DNA of 64,000 bases from Hyphomonadaceae bacterium (GTDB taxonomy: Bacteria; Pseudomonadota; Alphaproteobacteria; Caulobacterales; Aquidulcibacteraceae). Under the pieces are notes generated by a model. The model had not been told where the DNA came from. It saw nothing but the letters and a program-made list of their open reading frames with translations, and searched no databases. The position numbers and the translations under genes are program-made. The stretch covers positions 62,001 through 126,000 of the forward strand of contig JAIELJ010000006.1 in NCBI GenBank assembly GCA_019753105.1, in the 5' to 3' direction. Below, one piece after another: positions 8,483 through 16,677 of the stretch. Each line of letters opens with the position of its first letter. Within the stretch, counting starts at the first letter, position 1.

Positions 8483-10729
8483 TCAGACCAGCGAGCCCGG
8501 ATTGGCTTTCAAGCGAGCATACGCCTCGGCCATCTTCGTGTCGTACTGGTTCTGGGCGTAGCCCGGGCCGTTATAGCGGCGCGCGAAGTCCGCCCAGCGC
8601 TTGTCGCGCAGTTCGTCCGCTAGGCCCTTGGCGAGGATGTAGGCCTTGAACACGTCGAGCTGATCACGTTCCGAACGCGCCATCTTCGACACGTACTCGT
8701 GCGCATTGGCTAGGCTCATGTCCGTATAGTTCTCACCGAGAACCTGGAAGCGCCCGTAGCTCACGCTTTGCAGCGCTGCTTCTGGATCGAGCGAGTACGC
8801 CAATTCCAGCTGCGCCCAACGCTCGGCTTGCGTGCGTGGATAGCCGCCCGAACTTGGGTTGGAGATGCTTGGATGTGACGCATCGTACCGGCGATTGGTT
8901 TTGCTTGAGAACTTGTGACGCTCATAGAGGATCACCGGCTTGCCTTCCGAGGTGAAGGCGCCGAGACGCCCTGACTCCACCTCGGCCACGGCAGCGGCGG
9001 CTTCCCACTCACAACCTAGGTCAGCAGCTACAGATTCGAAATCAGCGCGCGTGAGCGGCGCAGTATTCTGTGCACGCAGCGTTGAGAGATAATTGTCGAC
9101 CACCGGCGGCAGCGCAGCGAACGCGCTGGCGAGCGCTGCCGCGTATCCTGCAGCGCCCGGCCCGCCTTCGAATTCTCCGGCAAAGCCAACCCAGTCGCGC
9201 CGTTGCAGCTCATCGACAAGCGACGCACGTGTTACGTAGGCCTTGAACGCTTCAAGCTGACGCTCTTCCGATTGGGCCATGTCCTGCACGAAGGCGAACA
9301 CGCTCGGATAGCCGGCCATCGCGAAATAGCGCCCTGGCAATTGGAACGCGCCGAAGCTCGTGGCGCCAAGCGCCGCATCGGGATCGAGCGCGTACGCTTC
9401 CGCGACCTTCGTCCAGCGCGAAGCTTGATTGCCGCCGAGCGGCGCGCGATTGCGGTTTGAGATGGCCGGGTGGCTTGCGTCGTACACGCCCCCGGTGGCT
9501 TCGCTGAAATAATATGGCTCGAACGAAATGAGCAGCTTGCCCCCGGAGAAACCGGGGCCAGCACTCTCAACGCGCAGAATGGCCTTCAGCACATTCACAT
9601 CGATGCCGAACGTCTGCGCTGCGGCGCCGAGTGTGGCGTCGTTCAGCCGCGTGGCGTCGGCGGCGCGCAGCGAGTCGAGCGTGAAGCCTGCCGGCGGCTG
9701 CGTCGGATCTACCTCCGGCGCGGGTGGCGGTGGCGGCGTCACCGGCGGAGGTGGCGGCGTCACCGGCGGAGGCGGCGGCGTCACCGGCGGAGGCGGCGGC
9801 GTCACTGGCGGCGGCGGCGGTTGCGGCGGCGGCGACGTCTGCACGTCGCGCAACTGACGGATGCGACGCGATGCGTCGTCGCGATAGTCACCATCCGGCC
9901 AGGCGCGGCGATAATCTTCGTACGCCGCTATCGTATCGATGCGCGCGGCGCGATCGTACGCGGCTCGATCATCGCGGCGTATCTGGTTGATTGTGCGCTC
10001 GGCGTCGCGGCGGTGATAGCCATCCGGGAAGTCGCGCAGGTAGCGCTCAAGATCGCGGATGTTGTTGGCGCGGCGCGCGCGATCCCAGGCGTAATCATCT
10101 TCGCGCTGGAACGCATCGAGCGCCGCACGCGCTTCGATGGCGTACGGTGATCGCGGATAAGCGCGGAGGAAATCCGCGTAACCACCGGGCGAATTCAAAC
10201 GCCGCGTGCGCACCCAGGCGCCTTCGTCCGTCGTCCACAGATACTCCAACCGGTCACGTGCGCGCTCAGAGTTCGCGCCGCTCGGCCAAGCATTCAAGAA
10301 GGCTTCATACGTTTCGATGCGATCGACGCGCGAAGCATCAGCCCATGCTGCGCGCTCTTCGGCAGCAAGACGCGGCGCAGCCAATTGCGCACGGCGCTCA
10401 TCGGCGCGCTGCGCTTCAGGTCCCCACGGATAATTGCTGAGGTAGCCGATATAGGCTTCTTCGGTATCGATCTGGCGCGCGCGCGACCACGCCGCGCGCT
10501 CTTCGCGCATCAAGCTCTCGATCCGCAGCCGCGCGCCTTGTGCGTTCGGCCAATCGCCATACTGGCGCAGATACTCTTCATAGGCGAAAGGCGAGTCCTG
10601 GCGCTGCGCAGTGACCCAGGCCTGAGCTTCCAGCTCTTCCATCGTCGGTGGCGGCGTAGCGCACGCCGCGAGCAAGGCCGCGACCGAAGCCGCAGCCAAC
10701 ATTTTCAAGCGCCAAAGTCCGGACGCCAT
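8483..10729 (-). CDS. Lipoprotein with tetratrico-like repeats and two N-acetylmuramidase domains
   Basis: A 748-residue envelope protein. The ATG at 10729 has a GAGGGGAG ribosome site and gives a lipoprotein signal with lipobox LAAC (Cys23). Residues ~30-295 hold about seven degenerate ~35-residue repeats of the pattern AW..A...DT..AYE.YL..YP.G...  (for example RIDTIAAYEDYRRAWPDGDY), like TPR/SLR protein-binding modules. A Pro-rich linker of VTPPPPP units covers ~298-340. Then come two copies of an N-acetylmuramidase (DUF3380-type) domain, about 375-550 and 570-740: each has a catalytic-type Glu (RVESAGPG; EVESGRLG), a YDASHP.ISN segment and SFGAFQ or SYGRFQ. The likely role is cleavage of peptidoglycan glycan strands while anchored to a membrane. 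Confidence 0.88.
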   Translation of the reverse strand: MASGLWRLKMLAAASVAALLAACATPPPTMEELEAQAWVTAQRQDSPFAYEEYLRQYGDWPNAQGARLRIESLMREERAAWSRARQIDTEEAYIGYLSNYPWGPEAQRADERRAQLAAPRLAAEERAAWADASRVDRIETYEAFLNAWPSGANSERARDRLEYLWTTDEGAWVRTRRLNSPGGYADFLRAYPRSPYAIEARAALDAFQREDDYAWDRARRANNIRDLERYLRDFPDGYHRRDAERTINQIRRDDRAAYDRAARIDTIAAYEDYRRAWPDGDYRDDASRRIRQLRDVQTSPPPQPPPPPVTPPPPPVTPPPPPVTPPPPPVTPPPPPAPEVDPTQPPAGFTLDSLRAADATRLNDATLGAAAQTFGIDVNVLKAILRVESAGPGFSGGKLLISFEPYYFSEATGGVYDASHPAISNRNRAPLGGNQASRWTKVAEAYALDPDAALGATSFGAFQLPGRYFAMAGYPSVFAFVQDMAQSEERQLEAFKAYVTRASLVDELQRRDWVGFAGEFEGGPGAAGYAAALASAFAALPPVVDNYLSTLRAQNTAPLTRADFESVAADLGCEWEAAAAVAEVESGRLGAFTSEGKPVILYERHKFSSKTNRRYDASHPSISNPSSGGYPRTQAERWAQLELAYSLDPEAALQSVSYGRFQVLGENYTDMSLANAHEYVSKMARSERDQLDVFKAYILAKGLADELRDKRWADFARRYNGPGYAQNQYDTKMAEAYARLKANPGSLV
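9728..9825 (-). repeat. 21-bp tandem repeat coding a VTPPPPP linker
   Basis: Just over four in-frame copies of a 21-base unit (+ strand GTCACCGGCGGAGGCGGCGG, repeating at 9738, 9759, 9780 and 9801). They encode Val-Thr-Pro5 units in the muramidase lipoprotein linker. The near identity of the copies suggests recent slippage and possible length variation between strains. Confidence 0.9.
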
Positions 10730-10802
10730 ATCAGCACTCCCCTCAATCCCAGTCTTCAGGCTAGTAGTCTCACCTGAACCGCGCCGGAATCGAAAGACGA
10801 AA

Positions 10803-11708
10803 ATGGGCATGACGTTCGAAATTACGTTTTGGGCGCTCATGGCTGTGAGCACTGCAGCTGCCGCTGCGTACGGGACGTACTTCCTCGACCGCCCGCGCAC
10901 CTGGGCGCGCGCGCTTGTGAAAACCGCTTTCATGGGCGCAATGACCGGCGCGTTCGTCGTCGCAGGAGCGCCCTTCCCTCTCGTGCTTGCGCTCGCGGCG
11001 TCGACGCTGGGCGATTTCTTCCTGGCGTTCGACAAAGCCTGGACGTTGCCGCTCGGCATCGTCTCGTTCCTGCTCGCACAATTACTCTACTTCGTCATCT
11101 TCGCGGGCCTGTGGTTCTTTTCCGGCGACAACGCCCCGCTCGAACCACGCTACGCTCTGATGCTGGCGATCGTGGTTTTTACGATTGGTGTTCTGGTATG
11201 GCTCTGGCGCGACGATCTTCGCGCACACCCGATCAGCACCGCCGTCACCGTGTTTCTGCTGTTCGCGACTGGCGTGCTGCTGCCGTTCTTCGTCGTGATC
11301 ACCTTCATGCCCGGCGCGCTCTCCGAAATGTTCACGTCACTGCTTGGCGCCGGCGCGACACCTCCACCTGCGACGATCCTCTACGCACCCTTTGCCGTGC
11401 TCGCCGCCGCTATCATCGCGAAGCGCTTGCGACGCGACCTCGGTGTCACGCGGCTCGGCGCGATGCTCTATGCCGGGATGATCACCGCTATGGCGTGCAT
11501 GGCGATGTGGATGCCGTGGGCGGCATGGCCTGCGATCGCCGGCGCACTTTTCTTCGTCGTCAGCGATTTCGTATTGGCGACAGAGCTTTTCCGCTTGCCA
11601 GCCGATGCACCACAGCGCCGTATCACGGCGCCTGTGGTGTGGTGGACCTATGTGGCGGCGCAGCTGCTGATCGTGTGGGGCGTTGTGTTGGCAGTCTTTG
11701 CTTCGTGA
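10803..11708 (+). CDS. YhhN family membrane protein (lysoplasmalogenase-like)
   Basis: A 301-residue polytopic membrane protein with about eight hydrophobic segments. The motifs STLGDFFLAF and GALFFVVSDFVLATELF match the paired D-containing helices of the YhhN/TMEM86 family, whose animal members hydrolyse the vinyl-ether bond of lysoplasmalogens. The bacterial substrate is uncertain. Downstream, ten bases on, is a lipoprotein gene. A decayed second copy of the last ~28 codons of this gene sits at 12445-12528, showing that its 3' end took part in a tandem duplication. It is divergent from the muramidase lipoprotein. Confidence 0.85.
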   Translation: MGMTFEITFWALMAVSTAAAAAYGTYFLDRPRTWARALVKTAFMGAMTGAFVVAGAPFPLVLALAASTLGDFFLAFDKAWTLPLGIVSFLLAQLLYFVIFAGLWFFSGDNAPLEPRYALMLAIVVFTIGVLVWLWRDDLRAHPISTAVTVFLLFATGVLLPFFVVITFMPGALSEMFTSLLGAGATPPPATILYAPFAVLAAAIIAKRLRRDLGVTRLGAMLYAGMITAMACMAMWMPWAAWPAIAGALFFVVSDFVLATELFRLPADAPQRRITAPVVWWTYVAAQLLIVWGVVLAVFAS

Positions 11709-11718
11709 GAGGATTGCG

Positions 11719-12432
11719 ATGCGGATGATGATTGCAGCGGCGGCGTTGCTTGTCGCGGCATGCGGCGCGCCTACGATAGGTGGCGACGACGCTCTGCCAG
11801 ACGACGATCTCGGAACTTATGGCGCAATCATCGCCGTCGGCGAAAACTGGCAGCTCAGCGGCGACCCCGGCGCAAGCGCGCTTTCGATTTACATGGACGA
11901 CGGAACGGAAGCCACCGGCACTTGGGTATCGCCGTACTATGTCCAGGGCCGCATCTCTGCGAGCGATATTCGGGTGACGCTAGAGAACGCGGCCTGTGAA
12001 CAGGACGGCGTCACCCACCCGCTGCGCGCCACAGTCACCTTCCCCGGTCACGAACTAGCGGGTTGCGCCGCGATGCGGTGGGACTCGCAACTCGACACGC
12101 TCATCGACGCGATTGACGCCTGCATAGCCGCCGCCCCCGCGCTACGCACGGTGACTTATGCTGGTGAGTTGCCAGACGGTTCAACGCTTGTGCGCGTGCG
12201 CAACGGCGATAACGCCCAGGATTGCCGCGTCGAGCGCGGTCGCGCCACGCACGCGCCGCGCGACGAAAGCTTGCTGCTCGCGACCGACAATGCCGCGATC
12301 CTGCTGCGCGCCCGCCCGGGCGAAACACAAAATCCCGGCGGCGAATGCTATGAGGCGCCGGAGGCATGGGTCTTTCGAGGTCATCACTCCAGGGAAATGG
12401 CGGGCTGGATGCTGGATCCAATGGGCTGCTAA
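11719..12432 (+). CDS. Hypothetical lipoprotein, tandem paralogue 1
   Basis: A 237-residue lipoprotein: signal MRMMIAAAALLVAAC with Cys15 lipidated. The mature part contains YGAIIAVGENWQLSGDP, a CEQDGVTHPLRATVTF segment, GCAAMRWDSQLDTLIDAIDACIAAAP, and a Cys-containing end GGECYEAPE...WMLDPMGC. The even spacing of several Cys pairs suggests disulfides. It is clearly homologous along its full length to the gene at 12539-13258. The start is chosen at 11719 because it gives the lipobox and GAGAGGA lies upstream. Function is unknown; the N-terminal GxxxxxGExWxL pattern recalls small heat-shock HslJ/META-like lipoproteins but this is only a resemblance. Confidence 0.82.
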   Translation: MRMMIAAAALLVAACGAPTIGGDDALPDDDLGTYGAIIAVGENWQLSGDPGASALSIYMDDGTEATGTWVSPYYVQGRISASDIRVTLENAACEQDGVTHPLRATVTFPGHELAGCAAMRWDSQLDTLIDAIDACIAAAPALRTVTYAGELPDGSTLVRVRNGDNAQDCRVERGRATHAPRDESLLLATDNAAILLRARPGETQNPGGECYEAPEAWVFRGHHSREMAGWMLDPMGC

Positions 12433-12444
12433 CCGATCGGCGGC

Positions 12445-12528
12445 ACAGCGCCCGTCGTCTGATGGACTTACATCGCGGCACAGGTATTGATCGTGTGGGG
12501 CGTAGTGTTGGCGGTGTTTGCGAACTGA
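12445..12528 (+). pseudogene. Duplicated 3'-end fragment of the yhhN gene
   Basis: Read in frame from 12445 this segment gives TAPVV-stop-WTYIAAQVLIVWGVVLAVFAN-stop. The true gene ends TAPVVWWTYVAAQLLIVWGVVLAVFAS at 11625-11708. DNA similarity continues past the stop into the start of the following lipoprotein (GATGCG...GATGATTGCAGCGGCGGCG). It is therefore a relic of a tandem duplication joining the two lipoprotein paralogues, with a Trp codon turned into TGA. Confidence 0.93.
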
Positions 12529-12538
12529 GGGGGATGTG

Positions 12539-13258
12539 ATGCGTTTGATGATTGCAGCGGCGGCGCTCATGCTTGCGGCATGCGGCGCGAGCACCGAAAG
12601 CTCCGAGGATGTACCAGATCCGAACGAACGTGTGCTGCCGTTCGGCGCCATCATCGCCAACGGTCAAAACTGGTCGTTCACCGCCGATCCCGATCCACAG
12701 GCGATTGCGTTCGTCGTCGATGACGGCGCCGAACCGGTCGAGATCACTGAACCATGGACGCCGCCGCAAACGGTGGAAGCGGGCTATCGCCTCGCATCCG
12801 GCGAACTCACGATCGATCTCGTTGATGAACCCTGCACGCAGGACAACGTCACTTACCCGATGCGCGCCACAGTTACGCACGTCACCGATCGCTACGAGGG
12901 CTGCGCCGCGATGCGCTGGGATCACCAACTCATCGCGCTGATGCCGCAGATCGACGCTTGCATCGCGCGCTCGCCGCAGACGCGCTGGGTGAGCTATGCC
13001 GGCGTGCAAGCGGACGGGAACATTCTCGTTCGGCTCAGTGGCGGCGATGCGTTCGACTGCACCGTAGCCTACGGCAATGCGCCGGAAGTCATGAGCTTCG
13101 GACAACGCAGCGAAACGCTCCGCGTCGCATCCGATGGCGCAGCACTCTTCGTGCGCGGCCCGGGCGAAAACCCCGGCGGTGAATGCTACGAAGCGCCGGA
13201 AGTGCGCGGCGCCAACGACGAGTTGCTTGGCTGGATGATGGATCCGATGGGTTGTTAG
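12539..13258 (+). CDS. Hypothetical lipoprotein, tandem paralogue 2
   Basis: A 239-residue lipoprotein (signal MRLMIAAAALMLAAC, Cys15). It aligns throughout with its upstream neighbour: FGAIIANGQNWSFTADP, CTQDNVTYPMRATVTH, GCAAMRWDHQLIALMPQIDACIARSP, and GGECYEAPE...WMMDPMGC. Cys positions are conserved between the two, which suggests a conserved disulfide-stabilised fold. It arose by the tandem duplication whose scar lies at 12445-12528. It uses the SD GAGGGGGATGTG. Function is unknown. Confidence 0.85.
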   Translation: MRLMIAAAALMLAACGASTESSEDVPDPNERVLPFGAIIANGQNWSFTADPDPQAIAFVVDDGAEPVEITEPWTPPQTVEAGYRLASGELTIDLVDEPCTQDNVTYPMRATVTHVTDRYEGCAAMRWDHQLIALMPQIDACIARSPQTRWVSYAGVQADGNILVRLSGGDAFDCTVAYGNAPEVMSFGQRSETLRVASDGAALFVRGPGENPGGECYEAPEVRGANDELLGWMMDPMGC

Positions 13259-13265
13259 CGCGACA

Positions 13266-13285
13266 CCCTCCCCTCGCGGGGAGGG
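13266..13285. terminator. Hairpin between convergent genes
   Basis: CCCTCCCC (13266-13273), loop TCGC, GGGGAGGG (13278-13285): a perfect 8-bp stem in the 36-base gap between the lipoprotein gene and hutU. Its position suits a bidirectional terminator, though there is no long T-run. Confidence 0.6.
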
Positions 13286-13294
13286 AATGCTCCT

Positions 13295-14956
13295 TTAGAT
13301 CGACGGCAGATCCAGCCCCTGCTCTTTCGCGCACGCTATCGCGTCGTCATAGCCCGCATCGGCGTGGCGCATGACGCCAGTGCCCGGATCGTTCCAGAGC
13401 ACGCGCGCGATGCGCTTGCTCGCCGCTTCAGTGCCGTCGCACACGATGACGACGCCCGAATGCTGCGAATAGCCCATGCCGACGCCGCCGCCATGATGCA
13501 GCGACACCCAAGTCGCGCCGCCAGCCGTGTTGAGCAACGCATTGAGCAACGGCCAATCGCTGACGGCGTCGCTGCCATCCTTCATGCGCTCGGTTTCGCG
13601 GTTGGGCGATGCGACTGAGCCAGAGTCCAAGTGATCGCGGCCGATCACAAGCGGCCCAATCTCGCCGCGCGCGACCATCTCGTTGAACGCGAGGCCCAAC
13701 CGATGGCGCTGGCCTAACCCGACCCAGCAGATGCGCGCGGGTAAGCCTTGGAACGCGATGCGTTCTTTCGCCATATCGAGCCAACGATGCAAATGCGCGT
13801 CGTTTGGGATGAGTTCTTTGACCTTCGCATCGGTCTTGGCGATATCGTCTTCGTTGCCGGTCAACGCCGCCCAACGGAACGGGCCGATGCCACGGCAGAA
13901 GAGCGGCCGCACATAGGCGGGCACGAAACCCGGATACGCGAACGCATCCTCAACGCCTTCGTCTTTCGCGACTTGGCGAATGTTGTTGCCGTAATCGACA
14001 ACCGGAACGCCCGCCTTGTGCCACTCCAACATCGCGCGCACGTGCACCGCCATCGAAGCGCGCGCCGCTTCAGCGACGGCTTCCGGATTCTGCGTGCGCG
14101 TCTGTACCCAGCGCTCAACGCTCCAGCCCGCAGGCAGATAGCCGTTCACAGGGTCATGCGCCGAGGTTTGATCCGTCACAGCGTCAGGGCGAATGCCGCG
14201 CTTGACCATCTCCGGTAAAATTTCAGCGGCGTTACCGAGCAAGCCGACAGAGATCGCCTCGCCTTTCGCGCACGCCTCATTGATCATCGCGAGCGCCTGA
14301 TCCAGCGTTTCAGCACGCTTATCGAGATAGCGCGTCTGCAAACGCTTATCGATGCGATCACTTTGGCACTCAATCGCCAAGCAGCACGCGCCGGCCATCA
14401 CAGCGGCCAACGGTTGCGCGCCGCCCATGCCGCCGAGGCCTGCGGTCAGCACCCATTTGCCCGTCCAATCGCCGCCAAAATGTTTGCGGCCCATTTCGGC
14501 GAACGTCTCGTACGTGCCCTGCACGATGCCTTGTGTGCCGATATAGATCCACGACCCGGCCGTCATCTGGCCGTACATCATGAGACCTTTGCGATCGAGT
14601 TCGTCAAAGTGCTCCCACGTCGCCCATTTCGGCACGAGATTGGAGTTGGCGAGCAGAACACGCGGCGCGTCAGCATGCGTCTTGAACACGCCAACAGGTT
14701 TGCCTGATTGGATCAGCAGCGTTTCATCGTCTTCAAGACGGCGCAGCGTTTCGACAATCTTATCGTACGCCACCCAATCACGCGCCGCGCGGCCAATGCC
14801 GCCATAGACGACCAGTTCTTCAGGATGCTCAGCGACATCCGGATCGAGATTGTTCATCAGCATACGCAGCGCAGCTTCCGTGAGCCAGCTCTTGCAGCTC
14901 AACTCTTTTCCACGCGGCGCGCGGATCACGCGCGATGCGTCGTGACGCGGATTCAT
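13295..14956 (-). CDS. hutU: Urocanate hydratase
   Basis: The second enzyme of histidine degradation, converting urocanate to imidazolone propionate with a tightly bound NAD. At 553 residues it has the family length. Signature stretches include [43 protein letters not shown], the NAD-binding [12 protein letters not shown], and [24 protein letters not shown] holds the conserved Cys region. The start at 14956 has an excellent ribosome site (GGAGG seven bases upstream). hutI and a hutG-like gene follow within 3 kb on alternating strands rather than as one operon. hutH is not in the window. Confidence 0.97.
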
Positions 14957-15022: not shown

Positions 15023-15463
15023 ATGCGCTTTGCGCTCATAAAAATCGGGGCTTTGCCCGCCAGCTTTGCGGCGCTGCGTGAGGCAGCGGAGCTTGAGGGC
15101 TACGCGTTCGTACGGCGGCTCGGTGATCGCTGGGATGGGGAGCGTTACGAGGACGACGCGCTGGCGACAGTTTGGGGCGCGATCGAAGACAACGCCTTGG
15201 TCGCAATCGCGGCGCAAACCTTCGACGAATACGACCCCTCTCCGCGGCATCGGCGCATTCGGCACTTCTACGTCCGACCAGACATGCGGCGCGGCGGCGT
15301 GGGTCGCGCCTTGGCGGCACGATTGATTGCGGATGCACACGCGCTTGCGCCGCTGCTTCATCTGCGCGCGACGCATGCATTATCGACAGCGTTCTGGGAT
15401 CGAATGGGATTTGCCCGTGTCGAGCAACGCGAGGATCGGACGCACGTGCTGGTACGGACTTAG
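15023..15463 (+). CDS. GNAT family N-acetyltransferase
   Basis: A 146-residue acetyl-CoA-dependent acyltransferase. The core motif A is readable: RHFYVRPDMRRGGVGRALAARLIADA, the Arg/Gln-x-x-Gly-x-Gly/Ala pyrophosphate loop being RRGGVGRA; motif B follows as FWDRMGFARVE. It lies between hutU and hutI, with its stop interlocked with that of hutI (TTAG). The position within a hut cluster hints at a link to histidine or a derivative, but the substrate cannot be read from sequence. The ATG at 15023 is chosen; an upstream extension would run antisense into hutU. Confidence 0.87.
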   Translation: MRFALIKIGALPASFAALREAAELEGYAFVRRLGDRWDGERYEDDALATVWGAIEDNALVAIAAQTFDEYDPSPRHRRIRHFYVRPDMRRGGVGRALAARLIADAHALAPLLHLRATHALSTAFWDRMGFARVEQREDRTHVLVRT

Positions 15464-16677
15464 GCGACGCCGCCTGCCACCACGCGCTCCCGCATCAGCG
15501 GCGCGCCAAGCCAGTAGCTTAGCTCTGCGGGCGAACCCACGTCCCAGACGGCAAGATCGCAAGCCTTGCCGACTTCCAGCGTCCCAACATCATCCAGCAT
15601 CCCCAACGCCCGCGCGCCTTCGCGTGTGATGCCGGCGAGCGCTTCTTCGGGCGTCAGGCGGAAGAACGTGCACGCCATATTGAGCGCGGCGAGCGGCGAG
15701 GTCATCGGCGACGTGCCCGGATTGCAATCGCTGGCGACGGCCATGCGAACGCCAGCAGGGCGCATTTTGTCGATCGGCGGAGATTTGGTTTCGCGCAGAA
15801 AGTAGAACGCGCCGGGCAGCAGCACGGCCACCGTGCCGTTCGCCGCCATCGCGGCAACCCCGGCATCATCGAGATGTTCGAGGTGGTCGGCGCTGAGCGC
15901 GCCGTAGCGCGCCGCGAGCTCAGCGCCGTGTTGATTGCTGAGCTGTTCGGCGTGCAGCTTTACGGCAAGGCCGTTTTCGAGCGCGGCGGAAAAGACATAG
16001 TCCACCTCATCCGCCGTGAAGCCAATGTTCTCGCAAAACGCATCGACGGCGTCAGCCAGGCCTTCAGACGCAATCGCCGGGATCATCACGTCGGCGACGA
16101 GTTGAACGTAAGCTGCGCGATCGTCTTTGAACTCAGGCGGCAAGGCGTGAAGGCCGAGGAAGGTGCGCTTCACACGCACATTGCCGATCTTGGCGAGATC
16201 GCCTGCCGCTTCGAGCATCTTGATCTCGGTTTCGAGATCGAGGCCGTAGCCGGATTTGATCTCGACGGTCGTGACACCTTCGCGCGTCAAACCAGCGAGG
16301 CGCTTGGCGGCGCTGGCGGTGAGTTCTTCTTTCGAAGCAGAGCGCGTAGCGGCGACCGTAGAGACAATACCGCCCCCCGCGCGCGCGATCTCTTCGTAGC
16401 TCTTGCCCTGCAGCCGCATCTCGAATTCGCGCGCGCGATTGCCGCCGAACACCAAATGCGTGTGGCAATCGACGAAACCCGGCGTGATCCAAGCATTCTC
16501 GCAACGCCGAACCTCGCGCGCCAGATCGCCAGGATGCCCCGGCAGATCGGCGGCGTAGCCGACCCAGGCGATCTTGCCGTCTTTGGCCGCCACCGCGCCG
16601 CGCTCAATCGCGCCATACGGCGCGCCGCCTTCGCGCATCGTCGCCAGATTTGCGTCAACCCAGAGCGTGTCCCACAT
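15460..16677 (-). CDS. hutI: Imidazolonepropionase
   Basis: Third enzyme of histidine degradation, hydrolysing imidazolone-5-propionate to N-formimidoyl-L-glutamate. The 405-residue amidohydrolase shows the metal motif GFVDCHTHLVFGG, the substrate-loop RLQGKSYEEIARAGGGI, EIKSGYGLDLETEIKML, a metal His in KLHAEQLSN, and VASDCNPGTSP with the catalytic-site Asp. It is almost certainly HutI rather than another amidohydrolase. It converges on the GNAT gene with a four-base overlap and is divergent from the hutG-like gene, from which a 117-base palindromic element separates it. Confidence 0.96.
   Translation of the reverse strand: MWDTLWVDANLATMREGGAPYGAIERGAVAAKDGKIAWVGYAADLPGHPGDLAREVRRCENAWITPGFVDCHTHLVFGGNRAREFEMRLQGKSYEEIARAGGGIVSTVAATRSASKEELTASAAKRLAGLTREGVTTVEIKSGYGLDLETEIKMLEAAGDLAKIGNVRVKRTFLGLHALPPEFKDDRAAYVQLVADVMIPAIASEGLADAVDAFCENIGFTADEVDYVFSAALENGLAVKLHAEQLSNQHGAELAARYGALSADHLEHLDDAGVAAMAANGTVAVLLPGAFYFLRETKSPPIDKMRPAGVRMAVASDCNPGTSPMTSPLAALNMACTFFRLTPEEALAGITREGARALGMLDDVGTLEVGKACDLAVWDVGSPAELSYWLGAPLMRERVVAGGVA

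What the first reader, a model, noticed from the sequence alone, without database searches (positions are those of the whole stretch)
12445..12528. Scar of a tandem duplication: a yhhN 3' end stranded between two lipoprotein paralogues
The sequence shows that ~28 codons of the yhhN end recur between two homologous lipoprotein genes, in frame but interrupted by a TGA replacing a Trp codon, and similarity runs on through the ribosome site into the next signal peptide. The duplicated unit was therefore yhhN-3'end plus lipoprotein. It gives the direction and breakpoint of the event, and shows both lipoproteins were kept while the fragment decayed.
Basis: seen in the sequence. Interest (0 to 1): 0.7.

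Follow-up and report, generated by a model that had tools for sequence, protein, structure and literature searches.

The report
Scar of a gene displacement event
In one environmental alphaproteobacterium a second, already different version of a membrane-protein and lipoprotein gene pair seems to have been stitched in beside the resident pair, keeping both lipoproteins and leaving only the last 27 codons of the displaced gene as a scar; this is a neat case of a known kind of event, not a simple duplication.

Summary
Window 12444-12589 repeats 11624-11769 (146 nt, ungapped, 78%), including 27 yhhN codons plus stop, one Trp codon now TGA. The left edge is a true breakpoint: the 13 nt after lipoprotein 1's stop match the 3' tail of hutU, which follows the single lipoprotein in G011, G001, G008, G018 and G020, and are joined to the yhhN end over about 2 bp. 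The joint has tandem-duplication geometry, but the copies were already different. Lipoprotein 1 is sister to G018's single copy (100/100); lipoprotein 2 is nearest to G011/G008/G001; their sisterhood is rejected (AU p 3e-4, 4e-6). The fragment differs from intact yhhN 4:1:15 by codon position (dN 0.09, dS 1.76), so most of its divergence happened inside a working gene. Best reading: recombination with a diverged version of the locus, illegitimate on one side and probably homologous on the other, displaced the resident yhhN and kept the resident lipoprotein. A published precedent exists (Vibrio immunity-gene arrays, PMC5361080). An ancient full duplication with later losses is not excluded.

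The parts
10803..11708 (+). intact yhhN, 301 aa, 'long' form with about 77 extra residues at 135-211
   Evidence: Pfam YhhN E 1.4e-27; long form also in 5 of 23 relatives with yhhN at the locus
11719..12432 (+). lipoprotein 1 (237 aa, lipobox LVAAC), type 1
   Evidence: 73% to the single copy of G018; clade with G018 100/100
12433..12445 (-). copy of the 3' tail of hutU directly after the lipoprotein 1 stop
   Evidence: 11 of 13 to the tails of G011, G001, G008; P 2.5e-5 at that fixed place; 12403-12445 matches lipoprotein end plus hutU end of G011 and G001 at 88% over 43 nt
12444..12445 (.). novel joint: hutU tail to yhhN 3' end, about 2 bp (CA) shared
   Evidence: alignment of both flanks; the partner sequences are inferred from relatives
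12445..12528 (+). remnant of a second yhhN: 27 codons plus stop, TGA at 12460-12462
12529..12538 (+). ribosome site region of lipoprotein 2, carried over with the remnant
   Evidence: GGGGG before ATG 12539, inside the 146-nt repeat
12539..13258 (+). lipoprotein 2 (239 aa), type 2, the type found singly in the nearest species
   Evidence: 73-75% to the single copies of G011, G008, G001; nearest rows in the tree, though no starred clade holds it
11624..11769 (+). first arm of the 146-nt repeat (yhhN end, ribosome site, signal peptide)
12444..12589 (+). second arm of the 146-nt repeat; left edge is the joint, right edge is where the two lipoprotein types part
13295..14956 (-). hutU (urocanate hydratase), convergent neighbour, whose 3' tail is the kind of sequence copied at 12433-12445
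   Evidence: TIGR01228 E 3.3e-292

Best explanation
A version of the locus with a long yhhN, a type-1 lipoprotein and the first bases of hutU's 3' end recombined into a chromosome that carried its own yhhN plus a type-2 lipoprotein. On the upstream side the join was homologous. On the downstream side hutU's 3' tail was joined illegitimately, over about 2 bp, to the inside of the resident yhhN 27 codons before its stop. The resident yhhN was lost except for that end, which still carries the ribosome site of the retained resident lipoprotein. The piece then began to decay (Trp to TGA). Shown: the joint, the separate affinities of the two lipoproteins, coding-type divergence of the remnant, at most one lipoprotein in the relatives fetched. 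Inferred: which copy came in, the homologous left end, the source, and that both lipoproteins work.
For: Joint made of hutU tail and yhhN end. Lipo1 with G018 100/100; lipo1 plus lipo2 as sisters rejected, AU p 3e-4 and 4e-6, although rpoB and the flanking genes place the genome with G011/G001 and place G018 with G008. Remnant changes 4:1:15 by codon position, dN 0.09, dS 1.76; 5 of 56 first and second positions changed. Intact yhhN is of the long form, absent from G011, G008 and G018. Long and short forms need at least 4 changes over 21 labelled genomes on the rpoB tree, and G007 (long) and G003 (short) are 97.8% alike in rpoB over 633 nt, which points to exchange at this locus. Upstream, G011 is the nearest of 10 relatives in 5 of the 9 60-nt windows from 10301 to 10840, among them all four from 10361 to 10600. 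0 of 24 fetched relatives has two lipoproteins.
Against: The second half of the intact yhhN tail and the lipo1 signal peptide (11663-11752) are nearer to copy 2 (69 of 90) and G011 (67 of 90) than to G018 (45 of 90), while 11618-11662 is nearest to G018 (39 of 45 against 36 for G011). So the incoming piece was not G018-like throughout: a further mosaic step, or change in G018, must be added. The N part of the intact yhhN is nearest by identity to G011 (69%), its tree pairs it with G020 (80/84), and it decides nothing (AU p 0.195 for G000+G011, 0.178 for the long forms together). The long-form clade with G000 has 92/94 on the whole protein and 87/92 on the C part, neither starred. The left crossover is not located. 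No starred clade holds lipo2. Type 1 is known outside this genome from one 9.4-kb contig of one metagenome-assembled genome (G018). A 2-bp overlap is below the 3 to 10 bp given as usual for this mechanism (PMC3240628, Introduction). The remnant is only 84 nt, and dS above 1 on 26 codons is rough.
Confidence: 0.66

Rival explanations
1. Ancient duplication of a whole yhhN-lipoprotein pair before G018/G008 parted from G000/G011/G001. Both pairs stayed functional, G018 later lost type 2, G008 and G011/G001 lost type 1, and in G000 the second yhhN was cut down late.
For: Explains the coding-type divergence of the remnant and the two lipoprotein lineages. The path between lipo1 and G018 (0.37) is about as long as between lipo2 and G011 (0.37) or G008 (0.38), as vertical descent of both types would give. 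The tail and signal peptide of copy 1 being G011-like fits residence in this lineage.
Against: Needs at least three scarless losses; none of the 24 relatives fetched at this locus keeps two lipoproteins or a detectable second yhhN piece. The patchy long and short yhhN forms speak for exchange between species.
Confidence: 0.23
2. One reading: one lineage tandemly duplicated yhhN 3' end plus lipoprotein, both lipoproteins diverged in place and the fragment decayed (in a variant, the diverged copy later passed to G018).
For: The joint hutU tail / yhhN end is what a simple tandem duplication of that unit would leave. The variant with later transfer to G018 is not touched by the AU test.
Against: Lipoproteins not sisters (AU p 3e-4 and 4e-6). 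In either form the fragment lacks the neutral change required (P 6e-9).
Confidence: 0.05
3. Assembly artefact: two strains' versions of the locus joined by the assembler.
For: The form is seen in one genome; 10 of the 11 named records found are titled MAG, metagenome-assembled; no reads could be examined.
Against: It lies inside a 596-kb contig of a 99.98% complete, 0.09% contaminated genome; the joint shares about 2 bp and the remnant carries a stop, which a k-mer overlap would not make (inference).
Confidence: 0.04

Closest known systems
Homology-facilitated illegitimate recombination (HFIR), described in Streptococcus pneumoniae, Acinetobacter baylyi and Pseudomonas stutzeri (PMC3240628, abstract and Introduction read)
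   Same: insertion coupled with a deletion of similar size; one illegitimate end with very short shared sequence
   Different: here inferred from the scar only; overlap about 2 bp instead of 3-10; left homologous end not located
[quoted passage not shown]
   Same: incoming upstream+downstream gene pair displaces the resident upstream gene, whose 3' end can be shifted back, and leaves the resident downstream gene behind it
   Different: membrane protein family plus lipoprotein of unknown function, no effector or immunity protein recognised, one step only
Tandem duplication by illegitimate recombination (general knowledge)
   Same: the joint between the right end and the left end of the unit
   Different: the copies were already diverged when joined

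Membership tests
HFIR product | one illegitimate junction with short shared sequence | tested here: met
   hutU tail joined to yhhN end over about 2 bp; shorter than the usual 3-10 bp, and the partners are inferred from relatives
HFIR product | other end joined by homologous recombination | tested here: inconclusive
   upstream flank mostly nearest to G011 up to about 10840, mixed after it, no decisive tree
HFIR product | inserted DNA foreign to the recipient | tested here: inconclusive
   lipo1 body groups with G018 100/100 and yhhN is the long form, but part of the tail and the signal peptide are G011-like
Displacement array (as in Vibrio T6SS) | upstream gene displaced, its 3' end left before the retained downstream gene | tested here: met
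   remnant 12445-12528 before lipo2; that it was displaced is the inference of this report
Displacement array (as in Vibrio T6SS) | genes are effector-immunity modules | tested here: not met
   upstream gene is YhhN family; lipoproteins have no Pfam or NCBIfam match at the cut-off
Simple in-place tandem duplication | the copies are each other's closest relatives | tested here: not met
   AU p 3e-4 and 4e-6
YhhN family (PF07947) | match above the curated Pfam cut-off | tested here: met
   97 bits against 25.6
YhhN family (PF07947) | lysoplasmalogenase activity | not testable with these tools
   activity of family members seen only in a search listing with abstract starts

The most novel reading that the evidence does not exclude
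The yhhN-lipoprotein locus of this genus is a displacement locus outside any toxin system: pairs are swapped between species as units, the upstream membrane gene is replaced and the downstream lipoprotein is kept, because carrying several lipoprotein types is itself selected (for example as surface variants against phages or rivals).
Probability: 0.12. Interest if true: 0.5.

Novelty: new member of a known kind. Interest (0 to 1): 0.3.

Why it matters
Neighbouring paralogues are often read as local duplications. Here an 84-nt scar with its codon-position pattern indicates that the two copies were already diverged when they were joined, which separates duplication from displacement by a related allele. 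The test (joint, single-copy relatives, codon-position pattern of the fragment) can be used at other loci.

Tried and rejected

Rows dropped before counts: G028 left out of the yhhN trees (truncated); 12 N-terminal residues of G018's lipoprotein reading trimmed, and G001's partial lipoprotein read from its contig start; G001, G007, G024, G003, G004 and G029 left out of the 8-row lipoprotein tree; G014's partial lipoprotein not in any tree; G026 left out of the rpoB tree, and G018 has only 11% of its columns; G004, G006 and G026 not labelled in the change count. In the 14-row lipoprotein tree five rows are short proteins (138-152 aa). Of the 29 relatives in the genus, 5 (G002, G005, G015, G016, G022) had no yhhN at this locus and were not fetched. 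The lipoprotein searches covered 61 genomes, the 30 of the genus and the 60 held of the family.

Full report
What is there. In the window the order is: a minus-strand gene (8483 to about 10780), yhhN 10803-11708 (+), lipoprotein 1 11719-12432 (+), a 106-nt gap, lipoprotein 2 12539-13258 (+), then hutU 13295-14956 (-) and hutI 15460-16677 (-). A 146-nt ungapped repeat at 78% joins 11624-11769 to 12444-12589. Against shuffles the match is far above chance: score 76 against a maximum of 32 in 1000. The gap codes in frame for the last 27 residues of a YhhN plus stop, with one Trp codon read as TGA.

The breakpoint. Similarity between the copies stops at 11624/12444 on the left. Between the lipoprotein 1 stop and this point lie 13 nt (two of them shared with the yhhN end) that match the 3' end of hutU as it directly follows the single lipoprotein in five relatives: 11 of 13 with G011, G001 and G008, 9 of 13 with G018 and G020, 10 of 13 with the window's own hutU. 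Independently, a DNA search with 12400-12560 over 60 genomes of the family found matches in 7; in G011 and G001 query 12403-12445 matches lipoprotein end plus hutU end at 88% over 43 nt, and in G008 at 84%. Only the window's genome holds the whole stretch. The joint is therefore hutU tail to yhhN end, over about 2 bp (CA). The right edge of the repeat (12589) is not a breakpoint; it is where the two lipoprotein types part.

Relatives. The genus has 30 genomes in the collection. A yhhN at this locus was found in 23 of the 29 relatives, and a 24th (G001) is cut at a contig end inside the lipoprotein. Ten have one complete lipoprotein behind yhhN (five of them short, 138-152 aa), G014 and G001 a partial match, and in twelve tblastn with the two window lipoproteins found none there at E 1e-5. 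None has two, and no yhhN remnant was detected in any. Lipoprotein 2 is 73-75% identical to the single copies of G011, G008 and G001; lipoprotein 1 is 73% identical to that of G018; the two window copies share about 50%.

Trees. Lipoprotein 1 and G018 form a clade at 100/100. G008, G011 and G001 form a branch (97/92); by path they are the rows nearest to lipoprotein 2 (0.37 to 0.41, against 1.26 to lipoprotein 1), but no starred clade holds lipoprotein 2. Holding the two window lipoproteins together is rejected (AU p 0.000319 with 14 rows; 4.0e-6 with 8 rows), and so is holding G018 with G008 (p 1.9e-5, 8 rows). rpoB places the window's genome with G020, G011 and G001 (96/94) and G018 with G008 (99/97), though G018 has only 11% of the rpoB columns. 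The six flanking proteins give G000 with G011 and G001 at 100/100, and G008 with G018 at 100/99. So lipoprotein 2 agrees with the species and lipoprotein 1 does not.

The fragment's clock. Between remnant and intact yhhN end, differences fall 4:1:15 on codon positions 1:2:3 (P 1.7e-4 against an even spread); without the stop codon dN is 0.09 and dS 1.76 over 26 codons. If half of the differences were neutral the third-position excess has P 0.008, if a quarter 0.034, if a tenth 0.07. Had the fragment been free of selection while the lipoproteins diverged (half of dS 1.36), about 25 changes at first and second positions would be expected; 5 of 56 are seen (P 6e-9). For half that time P is 6.5e-4; a quarter of it is not excluded (P 0.13). 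If all 5 changes were neutral the fragment has been free for about 0.1 substitutions per site, at most about 0.23. The fragment was thus part of a working yhhN for most of its separate history. dS above 1 on 26 codons is near saturation, so that figure is rough, but the contrast between positions is not.

The locus looks exchanged. yhhN occurs in a long form (about 300 aa: the window, G020, G027, G007, G004, G029) and a short form (about 235 aa); the forms need at least 4 changes on the rpoB tree over 21 labelled genomes, and G007 (long) and G003 (short) are 97.8% identical in rpoB over 633 nt. The window's nearest species with a readable yhhN, G011, has the short form.

Best explanation. A diverged version of the locus (long yhhN, type-1 lipoprotein, the first bases of hutU's 3' end) was joined in, by homology upstream and illegitimately downstream, displacing the resident yhhN except for its last 27 codons and keeping the resident lipoprotein with its ribosome site. 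[quoted passage not shown]

Against it, and open. The second half of the intact yhhN end and the signal peptide of lipoprotein 1 (11663-11752) resemble copy 2 and G011 more than G018 (69, 67 and 45 of 90), while 11618-11662 is nearest to G018 (39 of 45). Either the incoming version came from within the G011 side of the genus and only its lipoprotein body is of G018 type, or G018 itself changed there. The left end of the incoming piece is not located: G011 is nearest in 5 of the 9 windows from 10301 to 10840, and the picture is mixed after that; trees of the N part decide nothing. An ancient duplication of complete pairs with later losses also explains the clock and the tree; I prefer exchange because no fetched relative shows two pairs or a scar and because the locus is visibly patchy. 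A duplicate that diverged here and later passed to G018 would escape the AU test but not the fragment's clock.

Verdict. A real scar, correctly seen, with a better explanation than the one given: not duplication then decay, but most likely the joining of two already diverged versions. A new member of a known kind; interest 0.3.

Noticed in passing
10803-11708, residues 135-211: yhhN exists in long (about 300 aa) and short (about 235 aa) forms scattered over the genus; the long form carries about 77 extra residues in the middle. G003 (short, truncated at the contig end) has an N part grouping with its long-form species relatives (99/94) and a C part grouping with G018 (94/77, not starred).
   Followed up: partly
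13259-13294: 36 nt with an 8-bp perfect stem and 4-nt loop (13266-13285) lie between the stops of lipoprotein 2 and hutU; in G011, G008, G018 and G020 the two stop codons touch or overlap. The stem-loop occurs once in the window at up to 3 mismatches.
   Followed up: partly
L088, L089, L091, L092, L093, L100, L101, between yhhN or lipoprotein and hutU: Seven relatives hold a minus-strand ORF of 492-512 aa before hutU that looks like hutH (recalled, no family search made); none of that size was listed there in G011, G008, G018 or G020, and there is no room for one in the window.
   Followed up: no
8483-10780: In the relatives where this minus-strand protein was matched, the match stops at about residue 300-340 of the query used, in some because the contig ends; the window's protein goes on with a proline-rich stretch and two halves that look alike and look like muramidase domains (read by eye and recalled; no NCBIfam match for 8483-10756).
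   Followed up: no
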